Source: Thermoguttaceae bacterium (lineage in GTDB: Bacteria > Planctomycetota > Planctomycetia > Pirellulales > Thermoguttaceae). Taken from it: DNA of 64,000 nucleotides. This document shows positions 41,877 to 57,601 of this stretch, piece after piece (position 1 is the first letter of the stretch; every line of letters begins with the position of its first letter). A program made the position numbers and the translations under genes. The notes under the pieces are model-generated. The model saw only the letters and a program-made list of their open reading frames with translations, searched no databases and was not told the DNA's origin. Location of the stretch: positions 1-64,000 of the forward strand of contig JARKPK010000023.1 in the NCBI GenBank assembly GCA_029975295.1, in the 5' to 3' direction.

Positions 41877-44800
41877 CTACTCGATGAACCGGCGGATGAG
41901 GATCAGGTTTTCGATGTTCAGGTCTTCACCGCGGAAGAAGCCGACGGGAATCGACCGATCGATCAGATAGAACGCCCGATGGCGTTCGACTTCGCCGGTG
42001 TCGGCTCCCAATTCGTTGCGGATTTCCCAACCGTCGGGATGGCCCGCATCGACCGCGTGCGGATAGACCTCAAAATAGCCGACAGTAATCCACACGGCGA
42101 AGACATTGGATCGCGTGGTGCCGCAGGCGGCCAGCTTGCCCAAGCCCTGATAGCGGAAGAACGGATTGCGGTTGGCGTTTTCCGCCGGGTTCGCCGTTCG
42201 GCGTTCGAACATCGGCCGAGTCGGCTCGTCGGGATCGGCGCGCAGGATCGTAGCGTCGATTTCCCGGTTCGGCCGCAGTGCGTCGATCGGCACGTTGGCC
42301 GATCCGGCAAAGGAACGGAACGGGCGAGCTGTTGCCGCGGGCAGATCGTTCGTGTTCGGGCGAAGCAGGTCGTCGTTCACGCCGTCGCCGCGACGGCTGC
42401 GGACGAACTTCTCCCACATCGTCTGCGCGTTGCGATCGCCGAAGGTGTTCCAGTTCGTTCGGCCGGGGATTTCGTTGATTAGCCCGAAGAACACCTCCGG
42501 ATAATAGATCGTGTTGAGGTTCACCTTGCCCGGCTCGCGGTAGGTGGGCAAATGATGGAACGGCGGATGGAACCAATGATCGCCGCCAACCATCAAATTG
42601 GCCTTGCCGCGCAGCATAACGCCGGTGAACCGCGAAGGGACCGTCACATATTCCAGCAGCCGATGCAGTTCCATCGCCCCGTGCGCGCCGCCGGCCAGCG
42701 GCCGCGATTGGAAGAAGTTCAGCAGATGCGGGTAGGGCAGCCGATCGGCGGCGTTTCTCAGATCGGCCTCGTAGGGGTCGATTGAATCGCTTTGGTGCGG
42801 GTAGCCGTAGTAGCGATCGTCGCGGGCGGTCGAGTCTTCATTGCGCCGGGCCAAGAGCTTCGAGGATTGAACCGTCGGCACCAGCAGCAGTTCCATCGGG
42901 TGGAAGAACGGGCGGTTGTTCCAGGTGAACCAGGGGAACGGCTGTTGCGGATCGCCGCGGTAGGGATCGACAGCCGTGGGCGGGCCGAAGATGCTGTTGG
43001 CGGTTTTCCCGTCGTTCAGGTAACCGAGCGTGTGGACAAACTCATACTCGAAGACATGATTGGTCAGCGTCTTCGCGCCGGCTTCGATCCGCTTGCGGAT
43101 CGGCTCTTGCTTCCAGATGTTGAATTGCCCGGCGGCACGTTCGTTGCGCTCGCCGCGCTGGCGGCAATCGAATTGGGTGGTTGCGCGGGTGATGCCCGGC
43201 TCGATCACTTCTCCGCCTCCGACGGGATCGACAGGCTTTTTGATCCCGGTGAACACCGTCAGGTCCACCGGCAGCGAGTCGATCGTGCGATAAGGGTTGG
43301 TTACCGGATGGAAGGGCCGCGTCGGGTCGGCCAGCCGTTGCAGGTGGAGCACACGGAAGTGGGGCACCGTGCCGTCCTGGGCCAAAACCGTGGCCACGTC
43401 TTCGGCGTGATACTCGTTGGCCGAGGGCGGATCGCTGTAGTCGAACGGCTCGTCGTAGGGCACCTTGTAGCCTTCGGCCTCGGTGTGGACCTCGGGCGTA
43501 GCCGCGGCATCGACGTTGGGGTAGGCCTTCTTCGTCGGCGCGGTCACCCCCAGGCGGCGATCGGGCGGATTCGATTTGTCGATGACCACGGCGGCGGCAT
43601 CTTGCATGGCGATGTTCTGTTGGTCGGGCTGGGCGCCGTTGCGGTTGTCGCGCACTTCCACCTGGTTGCCCGAGGTCGGATCGGCGTTCGGCCGCAGCAC
43701 GATGCGGCGGATTTGATCGCGGTCGGTGTTCCAGTCGGTCATCGTCGTCTTTTCACCGATCCACGTGGGCTGTTCGGCCCGCGAGGCGTAGTAGCTGTCG
43801 GCGCTGTTGGGGCCGACCACCGCATAGCGGCCCGGCAGCAACGGCGCGATTCTGTTCGACCAACTGGCCGAGGGATAGAATTGCAGGTAGCCTTGCGAGC
43901 CGGCGTCGGGGTCGGCGAAGCCTGCGGTTGTCGATAAATCGACGAAGTAGATCGAGGCGAAAATCTTCTCCGGCCGCTGATTCGAGTCGTAATGGTCGGG
44001 GTCGGGCTGTTCCTCGCTCTCGTCGCGCGGCGAGGCCATCACAACGCGCCACACCGGGTCGCCGTTAGAGGCCACCTGGTTGAGCAGCACGCCGGCGGCC
44101 CACTGCCCGCTGCCCGACGGGCGGCGGTCTTTGCGAAACTCGCCGCTGGGCGCCTCGAAGGCCGACCACGGATTGAACAATTCGAAAAAGAGCGACGGCA
44201 GCGGCTTCTTCTTCTGGTCGAAATCGTTCTTGCCGTCGGTTTCGCCGCGGGGATTGCCCGGGCCGTTGTCGTGGGTGGTGGTTTTGCCGTTAGGCAGTTC
44301 CTCGGCGGTGTCTTTCGTGCGGCGGTCGTGGAAGGCGATCGCCTCGGTCAGCAACAGTTCGGGCCGTTCGCAGCCCCAAACGACCATCGCCGGATCGTTC
44401 GGCGGGTTCCAACCGTTGTTGCGGAAATCGGTGTCCAGCGCGAAGGGGAATCGCGTCATGATCGAGTCGCGGTCGTAGAAATCGACCACGTTGACCGCCC
44501 ACTGGGCCAGATAGCGGCAGGCCAGCCTGCGGCCGTTGCCGGCCCCATCCTCGAACACGGTGGTCAGGTGATCCATGTCGGCCAGCAAGCAGGCGAGAAC
44601 GTAAAGGTATCGGGCCTGCAACTGGCGGGCCGTATAGGGTTGGCCCGTGGCCGGATCGGTTCCGGGAAATTGGGCCACCGCCTCGCCCGACCGGCGATTG
44701 ATGTGGTCGAACGGCACGGCGGTGGGCTCGCCGGGGGCGAAGACGGCCAACTGCTCGCCGCCGTCGGCCTCGGCCGGATCGTCCACCACTCCGTCGCCGT

Positions 44801-46895
44801 TGTCGTCGCGCCCATTGCCGAACCAGCGGTTCAAATCGAGCCGCTCGCCGCGGAGCAACTCGGCCGGAAGCAGTTGCCGCCAGTATTGCGCGGGAATGTT
44901 CTTCGCCCGCAGCAAATCGACCGGATGCATCGCTCGTGGCGAAGTGCCGCGCATGGCAGTGCGCATTTCGGGCGTCAGCGCCATGTTGGGCACGGTCAGA
45001 TCCCAGCTTTCGGTGGTCAGGAGATGCCGCCGCTGCATCAGCCAGCTCGAATCGCCCAACCACGAAAGCCCCATCAGCCGGCCCGGCAAGCTTGGGTTGT
45101 CGCGATCGAACGGGCGGAGCAGCCGCTCCAATTCGCCGTAGCCGAACAGGTTGTCGGGCACGTTGGCCGGGGCCGGCGTGCTGGCGCCGCGCGGGGCGTC
45201 TAAGCCCACATTGATCTTGTACGGAACATCGGGCAAGTGGAAATCGCGGCCCATGCTGCTGTAGATCGGCCGACCGGCCACGTCCAAGCCGACCGCGCCG
45301 GCGGCGACCAAGTCGGGCGGCGAGGCGAAGGCGTCGAGCTGGTAGTTCGTTCCGGTCAGGTAGCCCCAGTAGTTGCCCGCATAGCTTGCCCAACGGCTGT
45401 AGTAGAGAAGATTGGTGATGCTGTTGTCCAACTGGCTGTCGTTGGCCGCCAAGCCCGGCCGCGGCATTTGGCCCCCGACCGCCAGCGCGTAGTCGCCCCA
45501 GCGCCCATCGAGCTGCATCGTCGTCATCCCGCCCAGAACGGCCTGATACATCGTCAGCGGATCGGCGCTTGCGCCAATGAACAACGGCAACAGGTTTACA
45601 TCGGCCGGGCCCATTCCCAGTCCGCGCGGCAAATTGTTCTGGGCTTGCCCGGCGGCGCCGTCGGCGAAACGGGCGACGTTCAGCGGCGCGGGCAGCTCTG
45701 CGCTTGCTTGCACCGCGTTGTAGTAAGCGGCCGACGTTTGCGCCATCGTGCCATGCACGTTCAGGTTCAATCGGCCGTCCATATCCATGCAGTAAATGGC
45801 GAACAGCGGCTTGTACTTCCGCCCGTCGGTCGTGGAACGGACGGGCATCCCCAGGTCGATCCAAATGCTGTCGGCAAGGCCGTCGCCGTCGTTGTCGACG
45901 TCCCAAGGTCCGTTCACCGGATCGAAGGCGGCCATTCCCGAGAGAGGGTTGCCCGGGAAGTACGGATGATCGGCCGGAGCGGGGCGCAACAACACCGAGC
46001 GGACCAAATCGATCGGACCGTTGCGGATGAAGTCGCCTGCGCTGCCCAACCCGGCGCGACGCGCCCAGTACGCGATCAGGTCGGGCCGATGGAACGACGG
46101 GGTGATCCGAAATCCCAACGGACTGGAACTCGACGGCACCGGCGGGGTGCCGAGGAACATGTTTTGGAAGTCGGCGGCGTCGTAATCCTCGTTCATGCCG
46201 CCCAAGGTGGGATCGACCGCGCCAACGCTGGCCTTGGCCACGTTGGGCATCAACCCCACTTCATAGCTGCCGACGCGAAGATCGAGATTGCCGGTGTTCG
46301 GATCGAAGCCCGCCCCGGCGCCGGAGAACGCGGGCTGATTGACCACGTAGTAGTCGCCGTTAGACGGCTGGCCCGAGTCGAACAGCACGGCCTGGAGCTT
46401 CGAGCCGCTGCTGTTGACGCCGACGATGTGCGCGCTGCGGCCCGCCGCCTGGCCGGTAATCATCGTCATCACGCAGCCCAAGTAATGGTAGGGCGTGGGA
46501 CGATACATGGGCGAAGCCGCGGGAAACGGCGGCACGTCGAACTCGAAGATCTGCCCGCCGCTGGCCACAGTCGCCAAGCCTGAAAGCTGCACGGCCGCAT
46601 CGCTCAGTTGCAGCACCCCGCCGGCGGCGACCGGCTGCCCGTACAAGTCTTCCAACAGGCTGTGCGGCCCGACGGCCGACAAAGCGTTGTTCGTGCCGCG
46701 AATCAACTGGCGAACGGCCTGGTCGGCCAGTTTCTGCGGGGTTTCCAACTCCATGTCGATCCGCGCATGCGATCGCGACGTGCGGCTGTGCTGACCGGCC
46801 ACCATCACGAAGGCGATCAACACCATGCCGAACATCGCCAGCAAGCCCATAATCACCAGCAGCAAAACGCCGCGGCGATGGTTGCTTCGCTTCAT
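41877..46895 (-). CDS. Giant pilin-like (PilX/GspK type) protein of pilus/secretion cluster, 1672 residues
   Basis: 1672 residues. The N-terminus K-R-S-N-H-R-R-G-V-L-L-L-V-I-M-G-L-L is a basic leader followed by a single hydrophobic helix, like PilX or GspK minor pilins, and almost all of the rest is hydrophilic. It carries calcium-loop-like motifs, D-V-D-N-D-G-D-G near residue 333 and D-D-N-G-D-G-V-V-D-D near residue 700. It is far longer than typical GspK (about 300-350 residues). It is probably anchored by the helix with a large extracytoplasmic part at the tip of a pilus-like structure. The start is the ATG at 46895 (AAAGG ribosome site 9 bp upstream) rather than an in-frame TTG at 46901. 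Last gene of the cluster. Confidence 0.75.
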   Translation of the reverse strand: MKRSNHRRGVLLLVIMGLLAMFGMVLIAFVMVAGQHSRTSRSHARIDMELETPQKLADQAVRQLIRGTNNALSAVGPHSLLEDLYGQPVAAGGVLQLSDAAVQLSGLATVASGGQIFEFDVPPFPAASPMYRPTPYHYLGCVMTMITGQAAGRSAHIVGVNSSGSKLQAVLFDSGQPSNGDYYVVNQPAFSGAGAGFDPNTGNLDLRVGSYEVGLMPNVAKASVGAVDPTLGGMNEDYDAADFQNMFLGTPPVPSSSSPLGFRITPSFHRPDLIAYWARRAGLGSAGDFIRNGPIDLVRSVLLRPAPADHPYFPGNPLSGMAAFDPVNGPWDVDNDGDGLADSIWIDLGMPVRSTTDGRKYKPLFAIYCMDMDGRLNLNVHGTMAQTSAAYYNAVQASAELPAPLNVARFADGAAGQAQNNLPRGLGMGPADVNLLPLFIGASADPLTMYQAVLGGMTTMQLDGRWGDYALAVGGQMPRPGLAANDSQLDNSITNLLYYSRWASYAGNYWGYLTGTNYQLDAFASPPDLVAAGAVGLDVAGRPIYSSMGRDFHLPDVPYKINVGLDAPRGASTPAPANVPDNLFGYGELERLLRPFDRDNPSLPGRLMGLSWLGDSSWLMQRRHLLTTESWDLTVPNMALTPEMRTAMRGTSPRAMHPVDLLRAKNIPAQYWRQLLPAELLRGERLDLNRWFGNGRDDNGDGVVDDPAEADGGEQLAVFAPGEPTAVPFDHINRRSGEAVAQFPGTDPATGQPYTARQLQARYLYVLACLLADMDHLTTVFEDGAGNGRRLACRYLAQWAVNVVDFYDRDSIMTRFPFALDTDFRNNGWNPPNDPAMVVWGCERPELLLTEAIAFHDRRTKDTAEELPNGKTTTHDNGPGNPRGETDGKNDFDQKKKPLPSLFFELFNPWSAFEAPSGEFRKDRRPSGSGQWAAGVLLNQVASNGDPVWRVVMASPRDESEEQPDPDHYDSNQRPEKIFASIYFVDLSTTAGFADPDAGSQGYLQFYPSASWSNRIAPLLPGRYAVVGPNSADSYYASRAEQPTWIGEKTTMTDWNTDRDQIRRIVLRPNADPTSGNQVEVRDNRNGAQPDQQNIAMQDAAAVVIDKSNPPDRRLGVTAPTKKAYPNVDAAATPEVHTEAEGYKVPYDEPFDYSDPPSANEYHAEDVATVLAQDGTVPHFRVLHLQRLADPTRPFHPVTNPYRTIDSLPVDLTVFTGIKKPVDPVGGGEVIEPGITRATTQFDCRQRGERNERAAGQFNIWKQEPIRKRIEAGAKTLTNHVFEYEFVHTLGYLNDGKTANSIFGPPTAVDPYRGDPQQPFPWFTWNNRPFFHPMELLLVPTVQSSKLLARRNEDSTARDDRYYGYPHQSDSIDPYEADLRNAADRLPYPHLLNFFQSRPLAGGAHGAMELHRLLEYVTVPSRFTGVMLRGKANLMVGGDHWFHPPFHHLPTYREPGKVNLNTIYYPEVFFGLINEIPGRTNWNTFGDRNAQTMWEKFVRSRRGDGVNDDLLRPNTNDLPAATARPFRSFAGSANVPIDALRPNREIDATILRADPDEPTRPMFERRTANPAENANRNPFFRYQGLGKLAACGTTRSNVFAVWITVGYFEVYPHAVDAGHPDGWEIRNELGADTGEVERHRAFYLIDRSIPVGFFRGEDLNIENLILIRRFIE

Positions 46896-47168
46896 GAGCA
46901 AAAACCTTTCTATTCGCCCGTCGGTCGAGCCGCGCGCTTCGCCTCAACCGCATTCGTTCATCGGGGCCCGAGCCTGCCCAGCCGCAGGCCGTTGTTGTCT
47001 GACCCAAGGGAGTATTCCCCGTCCACAGCCGATCGCAGGGACCGACCCCAACGGCCGCTGGTCTCGGCATCCGGCTGCCGCCACTTTGCCGTCGCCTGGG
47101 CCGAATTCGAATCTGCTGAGCCCCGTCGCGGCAACCGCTTTTCGCCGACGATTTCCGTCGCCGACGCG

Positions 47169-48233
47169 CTACCGGTATTTGTTCCAGGTGGGGTCCGTAT
47201 CGATCTCCACCATCGTCGAGTACACGCCGATCACCGTTTGCAGCACGACCGCCCGCGTCGTGGCCCCCGAGTAAATCACCCAGTCGGGCCCAACCAGCGT
47301 CAACAGCTCGGATCGCGGGTCGGCATCGGACCGCGGCGGGGCCGACACCACGCGATACCAGTGGCACTGCACGCCGTCGGCCAAGAGCAGCCATTGCCTC
47401 GGCCGAACCAGCAGCGGCGGGCTGACCTGCACCGTGCCGCCGCCAAGGGCCATCGGCGTGCCGCCCGGCAAGAATGCCACTTGCGCCACCTGTTCGGCCG
47501 CAATGCCCGCAGCCGTGTCGTCGCGGAACACGCGCTTATGGCAGACGGCCACCGACACCTGAAACGATTTCTTCAACGCCACCGGCGCCAGGCGTTCCGA
47601 TGCTGCCGGTGTCACTGTTGCCAGCCAGGTGTAGTGGCCCGCCGCGTTGTCGCCCGAAAGGTCGATCGCCTCGGGCCGCAGCTTGCGATCACTGGGGAAG
47701 TTGAACTGTTCATCGTCTTTGGCCATGAAGAACCGCTCGGCCAACGGCAGCGTAAACGCGACTCCGGCCGGGGTTCGCAGATTCAGTCGCGGAAGAAAGT
47801 TCAAACCGCCCACGAAATGCGCCGGGAAGCTGCCGCTTTCCGCCGGACCGCGCAGTACGCCGTACGGATCGATGGCGAACGGCGGCAAGGCGGTCGTCTG
47901 CCCGAATTGCACGTAGTTGGCCGGGATGTTCGGATGCACCCAGTAGCGGTAGTCGAGCATCCGCTGGACGCTCAGATCGCGCATGGCCGCTCGGCCGCAG
48001 GCGGCGGCGTAGTCGGAACGCGAGGTTTCGGCGATCGTAAAGCGACCCACCGGGATCAACGCCGCCAAACTCATCAACCCGATCGAAAGGATGAACGTCG
48101 AGAAGAGCACTTCCATCAAGCTCACGCCGGGCCGCACTGCGCCGGCGCCCGCCGCAGCCCCGCTGCCGCAGAAGCGCCGGCGGCGGCTCGGCCGCCGGAG
48201 AATCGCCGTTGCGCGCCCTTGGGTGTTCATCAT
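47169..48233 (-). CDS. Prepilin-type protein (PilV/GspI-like), minor pilin
   Basis: 354 residues. A long basic leader of about 36 residues ends in R-P-G followed by V-S-L-M-E-V-L-F-S-T-F-I-L, the prepilin cleavage motif (Gly then aliphatic, Glu at +5) and hydrophobic helix of type IV pilins. The remainder is a soluble pilin-fold-like domain of mixed beta content. It would be cut by a prepilin peptidase and enter the pilus or pseudopilus as a minor subunit. ATGA overlaps the upstream prepilin gene's stop at 48230-48233, so translation is coupled. The peptidase itself is not in the window. Confidence 0.85.
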   Translation of the reverse strand: MMNTQGRATAILRRPSRRRRFCGSGAAAGAGAVRPGVSLMEVLFSTFILSIGLMSLAALIPVGRFTIAETSRSDYAAACGRAAMRDLSVQRMLDYRYWVHPNIPANYVQFGQTTALPPFAIDPYGVLRGPAESGSFPAHFVGGLNFLPRLNLRTPAGVAFTLPLAERFFMAKDDEQFNFPSDRKLRPEAIDLSGDNAAGHYTWLATVTPAASERLAPVALKKSFQVSVAVCHKRVFRDDTAAGIAAEQVAQVAFLPGGTPMALGGGTVQVSPPLLVRPRQWLLLADGVQCHWYRVVSAPPRSDADPRSELLTLVGPDWVIYSGATTRAVVLQTVIGVYSTMVEIDTDPTWNKYR

Positions 48234-49291
48234 CCGCCTCCCTTCGACCGCCCGCTGCGGACAAATTCGCGCGATTCGTCGATCGATTGCGGCCGCCCCG
48301 AGGTGTTCCCCTCGGCAATGCCCACCTGTTCGGTAACGATCATTCCCTGCGGCGTAATGCCGATCCAGAAGTTTTCGAAATCTTGGAAGTTGGCCACCCC
48401 GCCCTCGGCCTGCGCGGCGGGCACGCGATCGCGCCGACCGAGCAGGAAGTAGGCCGGCATGATCCCCGGCCGGGCCGCGCCGTGAACGTAATACCGCTCC
48501 AATCCCCCGTTGGCGCCGAAGATCACATACACCGGCGAGGTGTCGCCGCTGCCCGACGGGGCAAAGGAATACGCCGGCAGCTCGTTGCCCGACGCCTCGA
48601 AATCAATCACCACCGGGGCCGGTATCTGCAACGGGGCGGCAGCCGACTTCTGCGGCTGACGGAGAATCTTGTACGGCATCGGCAGCGAAGGAGTGTTCGA
48701 CCAAGGCACCCACAGGCCCGTCGATAGATCGAGCACGGCCGTCAGGCTCGCTCCGCCGCTGCCATCGACCCCGGTGATCGTAAAGTACGGCCCTTGACCG
48801 TTGAACTGGATCAGATCGCCGGGATAAACCAAATTCAACCCGATCGACGGAGCAAACTGCACGGCCACGGTCGCCTGGTTCAAGGCCGAATACCCGGTCA
48901 ATCGCACCGAACACACCGCGCCGAGCGACTCGCCCGCGTACGGCGGCGGGGTTTCCACTTGATGCAGCACCATCCCCACCCGCGGGTCGCCGGCAAACCG
49001 CTCGATCATCACCCCGCAGGGACGATTCAATTCGATCGCGCGCGAGCGGGCCGAGCTGAAATACGTGCTCACCTGCCGGGCGGCCTCGCGCATCCGCCGC
49101 GATTCGACCGCCGGGCGAAGGTTCGGCGCGGCCACGGCCACCAGCGCCACGAGCACGCCGATGACGATCAACAACTCGATCAGCGTCAGGCCGCGGCGCG
49201 CACCCGTCCCCAACGCCGCCGTTCCGGGCCGGCCGTCGCGGGCCCGCCGCGTAGCGGGAGCCGACAAATCGTCTTGATTGCGCCGATTCAT
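48230..49291 (-). CDS. Prepilin-type protein (GspH/FimT-like)
   Basis: 353 residues. Leader of about 34 residues, then the cleavage site R-R-G followed by L-T-L-I-E-L-L-I-V-I-G-V-L-V-A-L-V-A-V-A-A-P, a class III signal with Glu at +5. The C-terminal domain, about 290 residues, is larger than most GspH proteins. In a pilus or pseudopilus it would be a minor subunit. Two bases separate it from the upstream pseudopilin gene, and its stop overlaps the next gene, so it sits in a tightly packed operon. Confidence 0.85.
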   Translation of the reverse strand: MNRRNQDDLSAPATRRARDGRPGTAALGTGARRGLTLIELLIVIGVLVALVAVAAPNLRPAVESRRMREAARQVSTYFSSARSRAIELNRPCGVMIERFAGDPRVGMVLHQVETPPPYAGESLGAVCSVRLTGYSALNQATVAVQFAPSIGLNLVYPGDLIQFNGQGPYFTITGVDGSGGASLTAVLDLSTGLWVPWSNTPSLPMPYKILRQPQKSAAAPLQIPAPVVIDFEASGNELPAYSFAPSGSGDTSPVYVIFGANGGLERYYVHGAARPGIMPAYFLLGRRDRVPAAQAEGGVANFQDFENFWIGITPQGMIVTEQVGIAEGNTSGRPQSIDESREFVRSGRSKGGG

Positions 49292-49293
49292 GG

Positions 49294-50220
49294 CTACCGT
49301 TGCTCGATGTGATGGTTGTGGATGTTGTCGAAAATCGCGTTGCCTTCCGAGGCGTCGATGCCGCCGATCGTGGGATCGGCGAAGGCGTTGCCGTTGAACT
49401 GCACGTTGTTGCCCACATTCACGCCGTACTTCTTATCCGGACCGGCCGAATAGATCAGCGGGATCAAATGGTAGGCGTCGGCCTGCACGCGGTGCGAATC
49501 GAACGGATCGTGGGCGTTGACCGAGTCGGCCCTCTGAATGTCGGAGAGCCCCGCCTCGTTGGTGAACCCCGGCGCCCAGCGGAGCCAATAAATCGGCATC
49601 CCCCAGCCGTCAACGAACTCGGGCCAGCCGTCGCCATCGACATCGCGCACTTCGTCGTCTTGAAACAGCTCGCGGGCTTCCGGATCGGAAGTCACCACCG
49701 CATACAGCATCTCCCCGTGTTGGTAATCGGGCGTGGCCGGCTGATTCTTGTAGCGAAGCCCGTACTGCATGGCCAAAGCGGACCACGGCAGCGCACGCCC
49801 ATGGGGAAGCGAAACCGGCGTGCCGAAATTGGCGTCGGTTTTGATGTCGTTGATCCGTTCGGGCATGTCCATCCGCATCATGTAGAGCAACGCCCGATAG
49901 CGCACCTCGGCCGCCTGCCGACCGCCCAAGCCGGTCAGATCGACCGGCACGCGCCGCGTGCGGTACGACTCGTAACGGGCCAGGATCAGGTGGTCGAGCT
50001 TGGCGATCGTGCCCTTGGTTCGGGCGATCCGCGCCTCTTGCCGGGTGGCGCTGACGGCCACCATGGCAATGCCCGCCAGCGTGAGAATCACCGTGATCGA
50101 CACGAGCAGTTCGACCAACGTGAACCCGCGCGGCCTGGGCCGGCGCGCAGCTCGGGCGGCGACCGCCGGCAAGGGCGGGCCGATTTCCCGTTCGGGCTTT
50201 CGCGGGATCAGACCGATCAT
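49294..50220 (-). CDS. Prepilin-type pseudopilin with calcium-loop motif
   Basis: 308 residues. Leader then R-P-R-G-F-T-L-V-E-L-L-V-S-I-T-V-I-L, a standard pilin helix with Glu at +5. Further on D-V-D-G-D-G-W-P-E-F-V-D-G-W-G-M-P-I resembles the calcium-binding region of type II secretion pseudopilins. The chosen ATG overlaps the TGA of the preceding gene (ATGA, 50217-50220). The longer open frame upstream to 50421 is the shadow of that gene. It is a likely minor or major pseudopilin of the apparatus encoded by this cluster. Confidence 0.85.
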   Translation of the reverse strand: MIGLIPRKPEREIGPPLPAVAARAARRPRPRGFTLVELLVSITVILTLAGIAMVAVSATRQEARIARTKGTIAKLDHLILARYESYRTRRVPVDLTGLGGRQAAEVRYRALLYMMRMDMPERINDIKTDANFGTPVSLPHGRALPWSALAMQYGLRYKNQPATPDYQHGEMLYAVVTSDPEARELFQDDEVRDVDGDGWPEFVDGWGMPIYWLRWAPGFTNEAGLSDIQRADSVNAHDPFDSHRVQADAYHLIPLIYSAGPDKKYGVNVGNNVQFNGNAFADPTIGGIDASEGNAIFDNIHNHHIEQR

Positions 50221-51020
50221 GGGATGGCGTCCTCGAACGTGCCGTCGGAGAAGTTGGCCACGTCGTCGTATTGCACTTCGTTGTAGTCCGTGCCGTCGGG
50301 GAAGGCGATGCCGCTGCCGTGCTTGCCGTCGAGGCCCGGGGCGCGGAGCTGGAACTTGTTCGGCGCGGCCCAGGCGTTCGGCCCGATGCGCAAATCGCGG
50401 CACGCCTTGCACTGGCTCCAATTCTTCACCGTGCTGGTGCCGGCGACGTAATAACCGCTGGCCCCCGATTTGAAATAGACGTAAGGCTCGGTGTCGTTGT
50501 TCGAGTTGGGCTGGAAGTAATAGAGCTTGTTGCCCACCAAACGCAGCCGGTCGGGGCGGAAATCGAACAACGGTTGGCGCCCGCCGGTGGTGACCGTCTC
50601 GAACGGGTTGCGCGGATTGGGACTGAACCCCAGCAACTCAGTGCCGTTGCGCATGCCGCCCAGCCAAAAAACCATGGCGGCGGCCGGATCGTTCTGCAAG
50701 TTGGTCCAACCAATGGCCGTCTTCCAATCGCCCGTGTAGCGCGGCCAAGTGGCGGCGATGAATCGGGCCACCTCCTGCTCGTTGGTGCAATCGGGCGGGT
50801 AGTCGCCGTACTTCTCTTTGAACAGCGCCAAGGCCTGCTCGATGCCGCTGAGCTCGAGCTTGATTTCGGCGACGCGGGCCGAAACCCGCACCCGCATCGC
50901 CACCGCCGTCACCAGACCGGCCAAAATGCCGATGATCACCACCACCACAAGCATTTCGACCAGCGTGAAGCCGGCGCGGACGCCGCTTGCCGAGCGATCT
51001 GCGCAATCGTTCCGTCGCAT
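50217..51020 (-). CDS. Type II secretion/type IV pilin subunit (GspG/PilA-like)
   Basis: 267 residues. After a 16-residue leader comes G-F-T-L-V-E-M-L-V-V-V-V-I-I-G-I-L-A-G-L, a strong prepilin cleavage site and hydrophobic helix. The soluble domain begins with an amphipathic stretch and K-Y-G-D-Y-P-P, a segment often seen in GspG-like pseudopilins. Its position first among the four prepilin genes suggests a major or initiating subunit. A GGGAGGG ribosome site lies 8 bp before the ATG. Confidence 0.87.
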   Translation of the reverse strand: MRRNDCADRSASGVRAGFTLVEMLVVVVIIGILAGLVTAVAMRVRVSARVAEIKLELSGIEQALALFKEKYGDYPPDCTNEQEVARFIAATWPRYTGDWKTAIGWTNLQNDPAAAMVFWLGGMRNGTELLGFSPNPRNPFETVTTGGRQPLFDFRPDRLRLVGNKLYYFQPNSNNDTEPYVYFKSGASGYYVAGTSTVKNWSQCKACRDLRIGPNAWAAPNKFQLRAPGLDGKHGSGIAFPDGTDYNEVQYDDVANFSDGTFEDAIP

Positions 51021-51139: not shown

Positions 51140-52471
51140 TTACGACAATTTCTGAATCAACGCGATCAGCGGCAAGAACAGCGCGATGACGATGAACCCC
51201 ACCATGCCGCCCAAGCAGATGATCAACAACGGCTCCATCAAGCTCATCAGGCTTTCCGTGAGCACGGCCACTTCTTCGTCGTAGTTGTCGGCGATCTTAT
51301 AGAGCATCTTGTCCAGTTCGCCGGTTTCCTCGCCCACGTCGATCATGTTCACCACCATGTCGTCGAGCACGCGCCCGCGGAGCTTGTTCAAATAGATCGC
51401 CACTCCGATGATCGGCGGCCAGAAGAACCAGAAGAAGAGCGCCACCGGGTGGAGCTTCAGTTTCGCGTTCTCGCGCATCGGCGTGGCGATCGATTCGCCC
51501 TCGCGGACCGATTCGTACACGCGCTGATAGAGGTTTTCGAACACGGCGTTGCCCGAGGTCTCTTTGGCGATGTGAATCGCTTCGAGGATCGGCACGCCGC
51601 TGGAAACCAGCGTGCCGAGGGTTCGCATCGTTCGGGCGATGATGTTCTTCTCGATCAACTGCCCGAAAATCGGCACCTTCAAGGCGAACTGGTCCCAGCC
51701 CATCCGCCCGGCGTTGAACTTGCGGACCAGCTTGAGGAACAGCCACAGCCCGATCGGGCCCAGCGGGAGCGACCACCAGTAGCTGCCCACCCACTTCGAG
51801 ATGGCGATGAGCATCTGCGTCATCGCCGGCAGCTCGGTGCCGAAGTCGGCGAAGATCTTCGTGAACGCCGGCACGATCTTCAGCATGATGAACACGAGGA
51901 TGCCCACGGCGAAGGCGACCACCGTGATCGGATACACCAGCGCGCCTTTCACCTTGCGTTTCAAGGCCTGCGAACGCTCTTGGAACTCGGCCAACCGCTG
52001 GAGAATCACTTCCAGCGCGCCGCCGGCCTCGCCCGCCTTGATCATGTTCACATAGAGCCGATCGAACGCCTTGGGCGTTTTCGACATCGCCTCCGACAGC
52101 GTGGCGCCGCCTTCGATCTCGTCGATCACGTCGATTAGGCAGTTCTTCAACTGGCCGGGCTTCTGCTGGCCTTCGAGAATCTTCAGGCTGCGGAGGATCG
52201 GCAGGCCGGCGTCCTGCAAAATCGACAACTGCCGCGTGAAGGTGGTCAACTGCTTCGAGCCGACCCGCCCCAGGGCGAAGCTCTTGCCCTTCTTCTTGGC
52301 GGTCGATTTCTGCTCGGGCCCTTTGCCGCGGCTCTTCTTCACCGCGATTTTGGTGACGAAGTAACCCATCTGGCGGATGGTCGCTTGCGCTTCATCCTGC
52401 GACGGGGCTTCGATCACATCCTTGATCTCCTGCCCGGTGGCGTCCATCGCCTCGTACTGAAAAATCGGCAT
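51140..52471 (-). CDS. pilC: PilC/GspF inner-membrane platform protein
   Basis: 443 residues, typical for the family. N-terminal F-Q-Y-E-A-M-D-A-T-G-Q-E-I-K is the classic start of PilC/GspF. Two GspF domains carry three membrane helices (for example around A-L-V-Y-P-I-T-V-V-A-F-A-V-G). Segments such as A-G-L-P-I-L-R-S-L and I-K-A-G-E-A-G-G-A-L are conserved landmarks. It anchors the pilus-assembly ATPase at the inner membrane. GGGAGG lies 8 bp upstream of the ATG. The second GspE/PilB-like gene precedes it by 118 bp on the same strand. Confidence 0.94.
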   Translation of the reverse strand: MPIFQYEAMDATGQEIKDVIEAPSQDEAQATIRQMGYFVTKIAVKKSRGKGPEQKSTAKKKGKSFALGRVGSKQLTTFTRQLSILQDAGLPILRSLKILEGQQKPGQLKNCLIDVIDEIEGGATLSEAMSKTPKAFDRLYVNMIKAGEAGGALEVILQRLAEFQERSQALKRKVKGALVYPITVVAFAVGILVFIMLKIVPAFTKIFADFGTELPAMTQMLIAISKWVGSYWWSLPLGPIGLWLFLKLVRKFNAGRMGWDQFALKVPIFGQLIEKNIIARTMRTLGTLVSSGVPILEAIHIAKETSGNAVFENLYQRVYESVREGESIATPMRENAKLKLHPVALFFWFFWPPIIGVAIYLNKLRGRVLDDMVVNMIDVGEETGELDKMLYKIADNYDEEVAVLTESLMSLMEPLLIICLGGMVGFIVIALFLPLIALIQKLS

Positions 52472-52589: not shown

Positions 52590-54305
52590 TCAATAGTCTG
52601 CCACGGTTTCCCGAATGACTTCTTCAATGGTGGTCGTTCCGCCGAACACCTTCTCCAAGCCCGAGGTGCGCAGCGGAATCATGCCCGATTGCAACGCGAT
52701 GTCGCGAATCTTTTCGGTCGAGGCGTTGCTGTTGATCGCCTCGCGGAGCCGATCGTTGACCGGCATGTACTCGAACAGGCCCGTCCGCCCCTTGAACCCC
52801 GTGTTGTTGCAGGCGGCGCAACCGCGACCGCGGTAGAACGTCTTTCCCAGCACGTCGTCGGGCGTCAGGTCCAATTGGGCCAGCGTTTCGGTGCTGGGAA
52901 CGGTGGGCTCTCGGCACTCTTTGCAAATGCGCCGCACCAAACGTTGGGCGAGCACGGCCTCCAAGGTGGCCGTCAGCAAGAACGGCGGCACGCCCATGTC
53001 GCGCATCCGCGTAACGGTCGATGGGGCGTCGTTGGTGTGCAGCGTGCTGAACACCAAGTGGCCGGTCAGCGACGCCTGCACGGCGATTTCCGCCGTTTCC
53101 AAGTCGCGGATTTCGCCCACGAGGATGATGTCGGGGTCTTGCCGCAAGATCGAACGCAGGCAGTGCGCAAAAGTGTTGCCGATCTGCGCATCGATGGGAA
53201 TCTGCACGATGCCGTCGATGTTGTACTCCACCGGATCTTCGGTGGTGATCAGCTTGTCTTCAATGCAATTCAACTCGTTCAGCGCGCCGTAAAGCGTCGT
53301 GGTCTTGCCCGAACCGGTCGGGCCGGTCACCAGCACGATGCCGTTGGGCCGGCGGATCACCTCGCGGAACGCTTCGAGGATGTTCTGCTCCATGCCCACT
53401 TTTTCCAGGTCGAGCATCACCACCGACCGGTCGAGCACCCGCATCACGATGCTTTCGCCGAACATCGTCGGCAAAACGCTGACGCGCAAATCGACGCGAT
53501 GGCCGCCCACGTTCAACTGAATGCGCCCGTCTTGCGGCAACCGTCGCTCGGCAATGTCGAGGTTGGCCATCACTTTGATTCGCGTGGTGATGGCGAACGC
53601 CAGATGCCGCGGCGGCGGCACCATTTCGTAAAGCACGCCGTCGGAGCGGATGCGAATCTTGAACTCGTTTTCGAACGGCTCGAAGTGCAAGTCGCTGGCA
53701 TGGTCCTTGATGGCCATCAACAGCACCATGTTCAGCAGCTTCCGCACCGGCGCGCTGTCGGCCAGGGCTTCGACGCTGGTCAGATCGAGCGTGTCTTTCT
53801 CGGCCGCCTGCACGGCGGCCAGCAGCTCGGCGTCTTGCTCCAACCCGGCGATCAGCGATTCCACACTTTCGCCGCCGACGGCGTAGTAGCGGTCGAGCGA
53901 CTTGCGTATGTCGCGCTCGGTGGCCACCACCGCGCGGATGTTGTACCCCAAGAAGCCCCGCAATTCGTCAATGATCGACAACTTCTGCGGATCGCACATG
54001 GCGATCGTCAGCGTGTTGTCTTCAAACGCCAGGGGAATGACTCGGTACATCTGAGCCATCGGCTCGGTGATGTAGCGAAGCACCTCGGGCGCAATCACCG
54101 CGTCGGCCAGCGACACGACCTGCATGCGGAATTGCTCGCCCAGCGCCTGGGCGAGCTGCTCGTCGGTAATCAAGCCCATGCTCAGCGCGATTTGCCCGAG
54201 CAACTCGCCGGGACGCTGCCGCTGCTCTTCCAGCAGCATCTCCAAGCGGTCTTCCGAAAGGAAGCCGAGATCGACCAGAATCTGACCGATACGCCGAATC
54301 GCCAT
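52590..54305 (-). CDS. PilB/GspE-like assembly ATPase
   Basis: 571 residues. N-terminal GspE domain (to about 170), then a RecA-like ATPase: Walker A G-P-T-G-S-G-K-T-T-T-L-Y and Walker B I-I-L-V-G-E-I-R-D. The zinc site has C-K-E-C near residue 475 and C-A-A-C about 35 residues later, the tetra-Cys motif of GspE/PilB. It powers pilus or pseudopilus extension from the cytoplasmic face. It precedes the PilC-like gene and follows PilT in transcription order. A second ATPase of the same type is encoded at 55.9-57.6 kb, so the cluster holds two assembly ATPases. Confidence 0.93.
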   Translation of the reverse strand: MAIRRIGQILVDLGFLSEDRLEMLLEEQRQRPGELLGQIALSMGLITDEQLAQALGEQFRMQVVSLADAVIAPEVLRYITEPMAQMYRVIPLAFEDNTLTIAMCDPQKLSIIDELRGFLGYNIRAVVATERDIRKSLDRYYAVGGESVESLIAGLEQDAELLAAVQAAEKDTLDLTSVEALADSAPVRKLLNMVLLMAIKDHASDLHFEPFENEFKIRIRSDGVLYEMVPPPRHLAFAITTRIKVMANLDIAERRLPQDGRIQLNVGGHRVDLRVSVLPTMFGESIVMRVLDRSVVMLDLEKVGMEQNILEAFREVIRRPNGIVLVTGPTGSGKTTTLYGALNELNCIEDKLITTEDPVEYNIDGIVQIPIDAQIGNTFAHCLRSILRQDPDIILVGEIRDLETAEIAVQASLTGHLVFSTLHTNDAPSTVTRMRDMGVPPFLLTATLEAVLAQRLVRRICKECREPTVPSTETLAQLDLTPDDVLGKTFYRGRGCAACNNTGFKGRTGLFEYMPVNDRLREAINSNASTEKIRDIALQSGMIPLRTSGLEKVFGGTTTIEEVIRETVADY

Positions 54306-54535: not shown

Positions 54536-55669
54536 CTATTCGTCGCCGCCGCCGTTGCGATCCAGTCGCCCGCGCGCTTCTTCCTCGTCTTCGAACAGTC
54601 CCCGTTCGGCCCGCGCGATCTTCGAGGCCAATTCCTCGGGATTGTTCGCCTTCATCAGCACTTCTTTCTTCTCGACGATTCCATCGCGCCACAACTTGAA
54701 CATGTGATCGTCGAGCAATTGCATGCCCAACTTCGCCCCGGTTTGAATCGTCGAGGTGATGCGGAACGTCTTGTTTTCTCGAATCAGGTTGGCCACGGCC
54801 GGAGTGACCACCAGCATTTCGTAGGCGGCCACGCGCCCTCCGCCGATCTTCGGCAACAGCGCCTGCGAGAGGATGCCGATGATCGAAGTGGACAACTGCG
54901 TGCGAATCTGCTCTTGCTGATTGGTCGGAAAGACGTCGATGATGCGGTTGACCGTGCCCTGAGCCCCGGTGGTGTGCAGCGTGCCCAAGACAATATGCCC
55001 GGTTTCCGCGGCCGTGATCGCCGTTTCAATCGTCTCCAAGTCGCGCATTTCACCGACGAGAATCACGTCGGGATCTTGCCGCAACGCCCGGCGAATGGCC
55101 TCGGCGAACGTGGGCACGTCCACCCCCAATTCGCGCTGGTTGACCGTCGATTTCTTGTGTTGGTGATAGAACTCGACCGGGTCTTCGATGGTGATGATGT
55201 GGTGCTCGTAGTTCTCGTTGATGTAATCGACCATGGCCGCCAACGTGGTCGTCTTGCCCGACCCGGTCGGCCCGGTCACCAAAATCAAACCGCGGGGCCG
55301 CTCGCACAACTTGGCCAACACCGGCGGCGTGCCCAAATCCTTGAAGTTCAGCAGCTTATTGGGGATCTGCCGAAGCACCATCCCCACATAGCCCTTCTGC
55401 TTGAAGACCGAAACGCGGAACCGCGCCTGGTCGCCAAAGGCAAAGCCGAAGTCGCTGCCGCCCACCTCCTGAAGCTCCTGCTGGCAACGTTCCGGCGTAA
55501 TCGCCTTCATCAAGGCAACGGTGTCTTCCGGCTCGAGCGACTTGGTTTCCAGCCGCTTCATCTTCCCATCGAGCCGAATCACCGGCGGCTGCCCCACCGC
55601 AATGTGCAAGTCGCTTGCCTTGCGGTTGACCACCGTTTGCAGAAGTTTGTCGATCAGAATAGTTGCCAT
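54536..55669 (-). CDS. pilT: PilT twitching/retraction ATPase
   Basis: 377 residues, usual length for PilT. Walker A G-P-T-G-S-G-K-T-T-T-L-A, Walker B I-L-V-G-E-M-R-D and the His box G-T-L-H-T-T-G-A. The C-terminal N-L-I-R-E motif (here before N-K-T-F-R-I-T-S) is part of the A-I-R-N-L-I-R-E signature of PilT and is absent from PilB/GspE. No zinc cysteines. It drives pilus disassembly (retraction). Presence of PilT between two assembly ATPases argues for a retractable pilus rather than a pure type II secretion system. The acidic C-terminal tail of about 25 residues (E-D-E-E-E-A-R-G) is distinctive. Confidence 0.95.
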   Translation of the reverse strand: MATILIDKLLQTVVNRKASDLHIAVGQPPVIRLDGKMKRLETKSLEPEDTVALMKAITPERCQQELQEVGGSDFGFAFGDQARFRVSVFKQKGYVGMVLRQIPNKLLNFKDLGTPPVLAKLCERPRGLILVTGPTGSGKTTTLAAMVDYINENYEHHIITIEDPVEFYHQHKKSTVNQRELGVDVPTFAEAIRRALRQDPDVILVGEMRDLETIETAITAAETGHIVLGTLHTTGAQGTVNRIIDVFPTNQQEQIRTQLSTSIIGILSQALLPKIGGGRVAAYEMLVVTPAVANLIRENKTFRITSTIQTGAKLGMQLLDDHMFKLWRDGIVEKKEVLMKANNPEELASKIARAERGLFEDEEEARGRLDRNGGGDE

Positions 55670-55882: not shown

Positions 55883-57601
55883 TTATTCCGATTCCGACCG
55901 TTTCGCCACTCGAAGCACCTCGTCCAACGTTGTAATCCCTCGGCAGACCTTCGAAATGCCGTCCCAATACAACGTCCGCATCCCTTCGGTCATCGCGGCG
56001 CGACGAATCACTTCCGTCGGCGAGTTGTTAAACGTCAGCTCCCGAATCTTCGACGACATCAACATCAACTCGAAAATGCCCAAACGCCCCCGAAAACCAC
56101 TGCCTTGGCAGTTTCCGCAACCGCGACCCTTCATAAACGTGGCCTTGGCCGCCATTTCGGGCGTAATGCCTGCCGCCTCTAGCACTACCTCGCTCGGAGT
56201 GAACGGCTGCTTGCATTTCTGGCAAATCACGCGCACCAAACGTTGCGCCATGATCGCCACCACACTGCTTGAGACCAAGTAGGGCGGGATGCCCATATCG
56301 ATCAAACGTGTAATGGCACTGGGCGCATCGTTCGTATGAAGTGTACTGAAAACCAAGTGTCCAGTAAGAGATGCCTGGATGCCCATCTGCGCAGTCTCGG
56401 CATCTCGCATTTCTCCCACCAGAATCACGTTGGGGGCCTGACGCAGCATGGCGCGGATCACCCGGGCGAAGTCGAGGCCGATGTCGTGCCGAATCTCGAC
56501 TTGGTTCACCCCGGGCAGGTAGTATTCCACCGGATCCTCGGCCGTGATGATTTTCCGGTCGGGCGTGTTCAGCTCGTTCAGGGCCGCGTAAAGAGACGTG
56601 GTTTTCCCGGAACCCGTCGGGCCGGTCACCAGGATGATTCCGTTGGGCCGATTGATCAGGCTCCTGATTTTTTGATAGTCGTCGTCGGCAAAACCCAACT
56701 GACGCAGCCCGACCTTAATGCTGTCTTTATCCAAAATCCGCATGACGCACGATTGGCCATGCACCGATGGGATGATGCTGACGCGAAGATCGAGTTCCTT
56801 GTCGTTGACAGTCACCTTGATTCGGCCGTCTTGCGTACGACGCCGTTCGGCAATGTCGAGTTTCGAGAGAATCTTGATACGGGATAGGATCGCTCCCAAC
56901 AGACGCCGCGGGGGGCTATCGCGTTCCACCAGCACGCCATCGATCCGGTAGCGAACCCGAATTCGATCTTCAAACGGCTCGATGTGGATGTCCGACGCCC
57001 GAAGCTGCACCGCCTCGCTGATGATTAAGTGCACCAAACGGACGATCGGGGCGCTGCTTTCGTCAACGTCTTCCTGAGTGGCGGCAGAGTCGGCCTCGGT
57101 TTCGGTGAAGTCGATGGCCGTGTCGGTAAACTCTTGCAGCATCGAGTCGGCGCTTTCGCCCACCGTTTGCCCATAGTACCGATTGATCGCCTCAAGGATG
57201 GCCTCGCGGGGGGCCAAAACAGGCGTGATTCGCCGGTTGAGGATGAACTGGAGCTTGTCGAAAACGTCGTAGGCGTCGGGCTTGCTGACCACAACCTTCA
57301 GCTCGCCGTCGTCCTCGGCCAAAGGAATGATCGCGTTTTCGCGGGCGACCGACTCGGGCACCAGCTCCACGACCGACGGCGGGATGACCGCCTCGCTGAG
57401 CTTGACCCAATCCAAACCCCATTCCTGGGCCATTGCTCGCGTTACGTCTTCGCCGGTCGCATAGCCCAGCCGGATCAGTGCATCGGCCAGCTCCATGCCC
57501 GACTCTTTGGCCATCTGCTTGGCTTCGTCGAGCTGGTCGATGCTGACAACTTTCTGCCGGACAAGGATTTCGGCGAAATCCGATTTTCTTTTGGCCGCCA
57601 T
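55883..57601 (-). CDS. PilB/GspE-like assembly ATPase (second copy)
   Basis: 572 residues. Like the other ATPase it has an N-terminal GspE domain, a Walker A G-P-T-G-S-G-K-T-T-S-L-Y, Walker B V-I-L-V-G-E-M-R-D, and a zinc site C-Q-K-C ... C-G-N-C. The two ATPases are clearly diverged, differing at many positions and in the zinc-loop spacing, so this is not a recent duplication. AGGAG lies 6 bp before the ATG and overlaps the stop of a small upstream frame, which suggests translational coupling. A divergent promoter pair lies about 300 bp upstream. It may be specific to pilus extension, with the other used in secretion, or the two could form a mixed system; sequence cannot settle this. Confidence 0.93.
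   Translation of the reverse strand: MAAKRKSDFAEILVRQKVVSIDQLDEAKQMAKESGMELADALIRLGYATGEDVTRAMAQEWGLDWVKLSEAVIPPSVVELVPESVARENAIIPLAEDDGELKVVVSKPDAYDVFDKLQFILNRRITPVLAPREAILEAINRYYGQTVGESADSMLQEFTDTAIDFTETEADSAATQEDVDESSAPIVRLVHLIISEAVQLRASDIHIEPFEDRIRVRYRIDGVLVERDSPPRRLLGAILSRIKILSKLDIAERRRTQDGRIKVTVNDKELDLRVSIIPSVHGQSCVMRILDKDSIKVGLRQLGFADDDYQKIRSLINRPNGIILVTGPTGSGKTTSLYAALNELNTPDRKIITAEDPVEYYLPGVNQVEIRHDIGLDFARVIRAMLRQAPNVILVGEMRDAETAQMGIQASLTGHLVFSTLHTNDAPSAITRLIDMGIPPYLVSSSVVAIMAQRLVRVICQKCKQPFTPSEVVLEAAGITPEMAAKATFMKGRGCGNCQGSGFRGRLGIFELMLMSSKIRELTFNNSPTEVIRRAAMTEGMRTLYWDGISKVCRGITTLDEVLRVAKRSESE

What the first reader, a model, noticed from the sequence alone, without database searches (positions are those of the whole stretch)
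41877..46895. 1672-residue protein with pilin-like N-terminus and calcium-loop-like motifs
Only the first ~35 residues look pilin-like; the rest is hydrophilic and about five times longer than GspK. D-V-D-N-D-G-D-G and D-D-N-G-D-G-V-V-D-D resemble calcium-binding loops seen in dockerin or pseudopilin proteins. It could be a very large tip adhesin or a secreted substrate docked by a pilin helix.
Basis: partly seen in the sequence, partly recalled or inferred. Interest (0 to 1): 0.65.

Follow-up and report, generated by a model that had tools for sequence, protein, structure and literature searches.

The report
Giant tip subunit of planctomycete pili
The 1,672-residue protein is most likely a greatly enlarged version of GspK, the small protein that caps type IV pili and type II secretion pseudopili; it carries extra domains inserted into the cap, so it could be the working tip of the retractable fibres that planctomycete bacteria are thought to use to catch large molecules.

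Summary
One uninterrupted frame (ATG 46895 to stop 41877) encodes 1,672 residues with a prepilin leader (RRG|VLLLV) and DxDxDG-type loops. Relatives, mostly 1,300-2,150 residues (up to ~2,900), all open frames, occur in 53 of 60 sampled genomes, across the order Pirellulales; a frameshift or assembly fusion is excluded. The claim that only the first 35 residues are pilin-like is wrong. The predicted ectodomain of the shortest relative matches GspK/XcpX best (Z 11.6, 227 of 261 residues, spread over model residues 1-1200; next unrelated hit 7.0). Shorter planctomycete homologues (811-1,092 aa) hit GspK and lamin-tail-domain models and align end to end with the giants (E 2e-31). The giants hit no Pfam or NCBIfam model. 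Position +5 is never Glu, as in filament-capping subunits. The gene ends a conserved operon, PilB-PilT-PilB-PilC-G-G-H-I-K; an ordinary T2SS with its own 532-aa GspK lies elsewhere in the genome. Best reading: the cap (K) subunit of a retractable type IV pilus, enlarged by internal insertions including a lamin-tail-like domain and a small beta-barrel. Tip exposure, ligand binding and calcium binding are inferred, not shown. New variant of a known kind.

The parts
41877..46895 (-). Giant K: 1,672-aa GspK/PilK-type cap subunit
   Evidence: single open frame; relatives; fold of a relative
46761..46895 (-). Residues 1-45: prepilin leader, RRG|V cleavage site and hydrophobic helix without Glu at +5
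   Evidence: sequence; conservation
46332..46634 (-). Residues ~88-188: inserted small beta-barrel
   Evidence: model of relative L145 residues 24-107, mapped by alignment; generic barrel match only
45870..45902 (-). Residues 332-342: DVDNDGDGLAD, conserved DxDxDG loop (calcium binding inferred)
45759..45809 (-). Residues 363-379: PLFAIYCMDMDGRLNLN, GspK-like core strand and NLN motif
44778..44807 (-). Residues 697-706: DDNGDGVVDD, second acidic loop, partly conserved
44451..45227 (-). Residues ~557-815: helical part corresponding to the GspK alpha-domain, ending in AQWAVNVVDFYDRDSIMT
43248..44366 (-). Residues ~844-1216: inserted lamin-tail-like beta-sandwich (itself with insertions)
   Evidence: lamin A/C 1ifr Z 6.6, 108/113 residues in L145 model; Pfam LTD in short homologues
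42876..42917 (-). Residues 1327-1340: NRPFFHPMELLLVP, GspK motif N.P..s..ELLLV
42336..42542 (-). Residues 1452-1520: YREPGKVNLNTI and following helices, second helical part of the GspK alpha-domain
41880..42119 (-). Residues 1593-1672: C-terminal strands TTRSNVFAVWITVGYFEV...DRSIPVGF
47169..48233 (-). GspI/PilV-like minor pilin
   Evidence: weak PilV and N_methyl hits; synteny
48230..49291 (-). GspH-like minor pilin
49294..50271 (-). GspG-like pilin G2 (exact start uncertain)
50217..51020 (-). GspG-like pilin G1
   Evidence: TIGR01710 7e-13
51140..52471 (-). PilC/GspF platform protein
   Evidence: T2SSF 1e-59
52590..54305 (-). PilB-like assembly ATPase with MshEN domain
54536..55669 (-). PilT-like retraction ATPase
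   Evidence: TIGR01420 464.6 bits, cut-off 319.1
55883..57601 (-). second PilB-like ATPase with MshEN domain

Best explanation
The protein is the K subunit (GspK/PilK type) of a PilT-equipped type IV pilus, enlarged about five-fold by domains inserted inside the GspK fold. Shown here: the prepilin leader and helix, the absence of Glu at +5, a GspK-like fold in the predicted ectodomain of the shortest relative, the bridge through 811-1,092-aa homologues, and the fixed gene order ending in K. Inferred: the prepilin peptidase cuts after G9, and K joins the I and H pilins in the inner membrane. Lacking Glu5, it caps and starts the filament. PilB drives addition of pilins below it, the cap is carried outward, and PilT pulls it back. 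Also inferred: the inserted lamin-tail-like sandwich, small beta-barrel and calcium-type loops form a large exposed surface that binds a ligand, perhaps doing in one chain what K plus the PilY1 adhesin do in other pili.
For: Fold: XcpX/GspK are the four best structural matches, Z 10.5-11.6 over nearly the whole model, next hit 7.0. Sequence bridge: short homologues hit T2SSK, NF037980 GspK and LTD, align end to end with the giants at E 2e-31 and with conventional GspK at 3e-8 and 1e-6. Leader and +5 residue. Invariant operon in more than 50 loci with PilT and PilB. A separate T2SS with its own GspK exists. Prepilin peptidases are encoded. Literature: the tip complex of minor pilins is capped by a subunit lacking Glu5 (PMC10191384).
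Against: The giants hit no GspK, LTD or other curated model. The whole-chain fold is predicted only for a relative, at moderate confidence; Foldseek E is 0.014. The model of window residues 527-1672 alone found no match. Lamin-tail match Z 6.6 is below the level at which a match is safe. No GspJ-like gene is recognised in the operon. A cap of roughly 180 kDa must pass a secretin gate. Tip location, retraction, ligand and calcium are not tested. PilY1 absence has no positive control.
Confidence: 0.72

Rival explanations
1. It is the giant tip of a periplasmic type II secretion-type pseudopilus. The inserted domains recognise or push secreted substrates, and no extracellular pilus is made.
For: The closest fold and motifs are GspK of T2SS; the gene order E-F-G-H-I-K resembles gsp operons; such a large cap would not need to leave the cell.
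Against: PilT and two PilB-like ATPases with MshEN domains are in the operon; a canonical T2SS with a normal GspK is encoded elsewhere.
Confidence: 0.2
2. It belongs to the Verru_Chthon cassette: a pilin-like export or surface cassette of the PVC superphylum whose large A protein has an unknown job, not a pilus cap.
For: Short homologues hit TIGR02600 at up to 5.7e-7 and a neighbouring pilin hits cassette protein D weakly.
Against: No giant hits TIGR02600. The same short homologues hit GspK more strongly (2.5e-11), so cassette A may itself be an enlarged K. The operon has full pilus motors.
Confidence: 0.07
3. A secreted substrate or free adhesin merely docked by a pilin-like helix, with an unrelated body.
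For: The body has no sequence match in Pfam, NCBIfam or PDB.
Against: GspK-like fold and motifs extend to the C-terminus; fixed K position in the operon.
Confidence: 0.03
4. A frameshift or assembly error merged two genes.
For: None found.
Against: Dozens of independent genomes carry collinear full-length open frames without stops.
Confidence: 0.01

Closest known systems
GspK / XcpX, cap minor pseudopilin of T2SS (PDB 3CI0, 5VTM, 6UTU)
   Same: Prepilin leader, no Glu5, pilin sheet with an inserted alpha-domain, NLN / DWiDaD / ELLLV / PGrinlN motifs in the same order, last in the E-F-G-H-I-K gene order; a calcium-binding precedent (PMC6211770)
   Different: About five times longer; extra barrel and lamin-tail-like insertions; operon with PilT; not recognised by GspK models; conserved acidic loop not seen in the C9 GspK of the same genome
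Modular pilins (S. sanguinis PilB/PilC, ETEC CofB, Thermus ComZ; PMC8179133)
   Same: A pilin carrying a bulky functional module, proposed to act at the filament tip
   Different: Modules are mostly C-terminal grafts (ComZ: an insertion); the most extreme multi-domain case named in the survey is 860 aa; here the insertions sit in a GspK-type fold and the protein is conserved across an order
T4aP K minor pilin plus PilY1/PilC tip adhesin
   Same: Proposed joint role: priming cap and large tip adhesin
   Different: Here one chain; no PilY1 domain found, without positive control
Verru_Chthon cassette protein A (TIGR02600)
   Same: Large PVC protein beside pilin-like genes; weak similarity through the short homologues
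   Different: The giants do not match the model

Membership tests
Type 4 filament K subunit (GspK/PilK superfamily) | Class III prepilin leader and N-terminal hydrophobic helix | tested here: met
   RRG|VLLLV; Gly at -1 in 61 of 62 relatives
Type 4 filament K subunit (GspK/PilK superfamily) | No Glu at +5 | tested here: met
   0 of 62 relatives have Glu
Type 4 filament K subunit (GspK/PilK superfamily) | Pilin sheet with an inserted alpha-domain (GspK fold) | tested here: met
   In relative L145: Z 11.6, 227/261 residues. The window's own residues 527-1672 alone gave no match; the full window protein could not be folded
Type 4 filament K subunit (GspK/PilK superfamily) | Operon position after G, H and I pilins | tested here: met
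Type 4 filament K subunit (GspK/PilK superfamily) | Forms a tip complex with I and J | not testable with these tools
   No recognised J gene in the operon
NF037980 T2SS_GspK equivalog / PF03934 | Score above the curated cut-off | tested here: not met
   No hit in 26 giants; short homologues hit below cut-off. So it is not filed as a T2SS GspK equivalog
Lamin tail domain (PF00932) | Sequence match to the model | tested here: not met
   Giants: none; short homologue L168 above the cut-off
Lamin tail domain (PF00932) | Lamin Ig fold | tested here: inconclusive
   1ifr Z 6.6, 108/113 residues in L145; not found with the window model
Verru_Chthon cassette protein A (TIGR02600) | Score above the curated cut-off | tested here: not met
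Dockerin | Dockerin domain match | tested here: not met
   No hit at E up to 1
Calcium-binding DxDxDG protein | Binds calcium | not testable with these tools
   Only the conserved acidic loop is shown

The most novel reading that the evidence does not exclude
Giant K is the ligand-catching head of planctomycete 'fishing-rod' pili: one chain combining the roles of the K cap and the PilY1 adhesin, carried on PilT-retractable fibres that leave crateriform structures and draw polysaccharides into the periplasm.
Probability: 0.22. Interest if true: 0.87.

Novelty: new variant of a known kind. Interest (0 to 1): 0.62.

Why it matters
It explains a widespread family of proteins of 1,300-2,900 residues in Planctomycetota that has no Pfam or NCBIfam match. 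It is the largest K-type pilin I know of; the published survey of modular pilins names 860 aa as its most extreme multi-domain case (PMC8179133). It gives a concrete candidate operon for the dextran-binding, pili-like fibres attached to crateriform structures (PMC5394234) and for the hypothesis that planctomycetes take up polysaccharides with pili of pilin-like proteins (PMC12078418). Gene deletions could test this.

Tried and rejected
Direct sequence searches of the giant against Pfam, NCBIfam and PDB gave nothing. T2SSK and TIGR02600 scans of the own genome missed the giant; of the other T2SSK hits, C164 is a DnaE-like polymerase, C64 a ComEA-like HhH protein and C157 an RsmH-like methyltransferase by my reading. 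The profile of the short homologues against PDB gave only chance hits. Folding window residues 527-1672 gave a good model (pTM 0.82) but no informative match, probably because the GspK sheet needs the N-terminal strands; this is not counted as support. PilY1 absence is not controlled: the model rang in no control genome, so it is suggestive only. Dockerin and frameshift explanations were rejected as stated.

Full report
OBSERVATION. The minus-strand frame 41877-46901 is open; from ATG 46895 it gives 1,672 aa. The N-terminus MKRSNHRRG|VLLLVIMGLLAMFGMVLIAFVM is a prepilin leader and helix. The acidic loops DVDNDGDGLAD (332-342) and DDNGDGVVDD (697-706) are present. A D.D.DG..D motif arises in 0.45% of shuffles of the same composition, and the first loop is conserved in most relatives. 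The protein matches no Pfam, NCBIfam or PDB sequence.

NOT AN ARTEFACT. 53 of 60 related genomes contain a relative. About 110 loci from two searches, several of them the same genome fetched twice, show single open frames, mostly 1,300-2,150 aa and up to ~2,900 aa. Named contigs place the family in Pirellulales, including Blastopirellula marina DSM 3645 and Bythopirellula polymerisocia. Diverged relatives of about 1,400-2,350 aa occur elsewhere in the class, and profile matches to proteins of 811-1,092 aa (and some larger) in the rest of the phylum.

CONSERVED ANATOMY. Alignment of 33-35 full-length members shows the blocks RRGvlLlv.l.lLa.F; wDVDnDgDG..DSiWvD.G.Pv....PLfAilc.D.DGrlNlNahG; D.pF..aElEr.lR..D.D; AQWAvNvVDFrD.DsiMT; ErPeLlitE...ELYNP; LQRLANP...NPY.T.D; nRPf.s..ELlLVP; yRePG.vNlNTi....vw; TTrSNVyAvWiTvGyFEv...DRSiPVgf. 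Several are GspK motifs: the conventional GspK on contig C9 of the same genome has YGIEDESTKLNLNAL, ILDWMDADDEP, NGPLETIEELLLVRGV and IPGRININQAP in the same order.

BRIDGE BY SHORT HOMOLOGUES. Proteins of 811-1,092 aa from other planctomycete classes carry the same blocks. They hit T2SSK, HHH_3 and, in one case above the gathering cut-off, the lamin tail domain. Six of eight hit NF037980 T2SS_GspK (best 2.5e-11) and three hit Verru_Chthon cassette A (best 5.7e-7). Their profile aligns with the giant profile end to end (870 columns, E 2.1e-31). It also aligns with conventional GspK at the N-terminal helix (2.9e-8) and from PGRINxNTA to the C-terminus (1.3e-6). The giant profile aligns with conventional GspK directly only at the helix (2.2e-5).

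STRUCTURE. Only window sequences and loci from certain searches could be folded, up to 1,200 aa. I folded the ectodomain of the smallest relative, L145 (Thermoguttaceae), with 46 sequences: mean pLDDT 72, pTM 0.79. Foldseek's best of 350,542 chains is XcpX (GspK) 6utu_C, with 5vtm_X, 9a1f_T and 3ci0_K also in the top 21, though the E-value is only 0.014. VIA-align gives Z 11.6, 11.6, 10.6 and 10.5 to these four, with 211-227 residues aligned over model residues 1-1200 (9a1f_T: 14-1199); the next hit is at 7.0. The GspK core is thus spread over the whole chain, with the extra mass inserted in it. Residues 522-851 (window ~844-1211) match the lamin A/C tail domain (1ifr, Z 6.6, 108 of 113 residues), where the short homologues have the Pfam LTD hit. 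By the motifs it lies between the 'DWiDaD' and 'N.P..s..ELLLV' elements of the GspK alpha-domain. Residues 24-107 (window ~88-188) form a small beta-barrel. A second model, of window residues 527-1672 (pTM 0.82), found no informative match; it lacks the N-terminal strands.

CONTEXT. The operon reads PilB - PilT - PilB - PilC/GspF - G1 - G2 - H - I - K and is conserved in more than 50 loci. PilT scores well above its family cut-off. The genome separately has a canonical T2SS (GspE-F-G-H-I-J-K; GspK 532 aa), whose K is also common in the order (29 of 40 genomes). PilM, PilO-like and secretin genes lie on contig C39 and prepilin peptidases elsewhere; which of them serve this system is not known. 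PilY1 was not found in related genomes, but there was no positive control.

MECHANISM. Shown: sequence features, gene order, predicted fold of a relative. Inferred from the type 4 filament literature: a complex of minor pilins capped by a subunit lacking Glu5 starts filament assembly (PMC10191384); no relative has Glu5 (0 of 62). So K most likely caps and primes a retractable pilus and presents its inserted domains at the tip. Its ligand is unknown. Dextran-binding pili-like fibres attached to crateriform structures are described in Planctopirus and Gemmata (PMC5394234), and uptake by 'fishing-rod' pili of pilin-like proteins is hypothesised (PMC12078418). This operon is a candidate; that link is a hypothesis.

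VERDICT. A real, widespread and essentially unannotated enlargement of a known kind of protein.

Noticed in passing
L182 (own genome, contig C9), 4815-13313: A separate canonical T2SS cluster GspE-F-G-H-I-J-K with an ordinary 532-aa GspK.
   Followed up: yes
window 46896-47168: A 271-nt gap between the I pilin and giant K, and no recognisable GspJ in the operon; what replaces J is unexplained.
   Followed up: no
own genome, contigs C7 (13231-13749) and C84 (17607-18230): Secretin domains inside unusually long frames of about 1,460 aa; they may be matching giant gates.
   Followed up: no
L166-L171, L176: Short GspK homologues of other planctomycete classes carry a lamin-tail domain inside GspK, which I have not seen described.
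   Followed up: partly
window 52590-54305 and 55883-57601: Two PilB-like ATPases with MshEN domains flank PilT; MshEN-type domains bind cyclic di-GMP in other ATPases, so the pilus may be under c-di-GMP control.
   Followed up: no
window 39772-41841: A mannosyltransferase-like membrane protein converges on the giant K gene with about 35 nt between the two ends.
   Followed up: no
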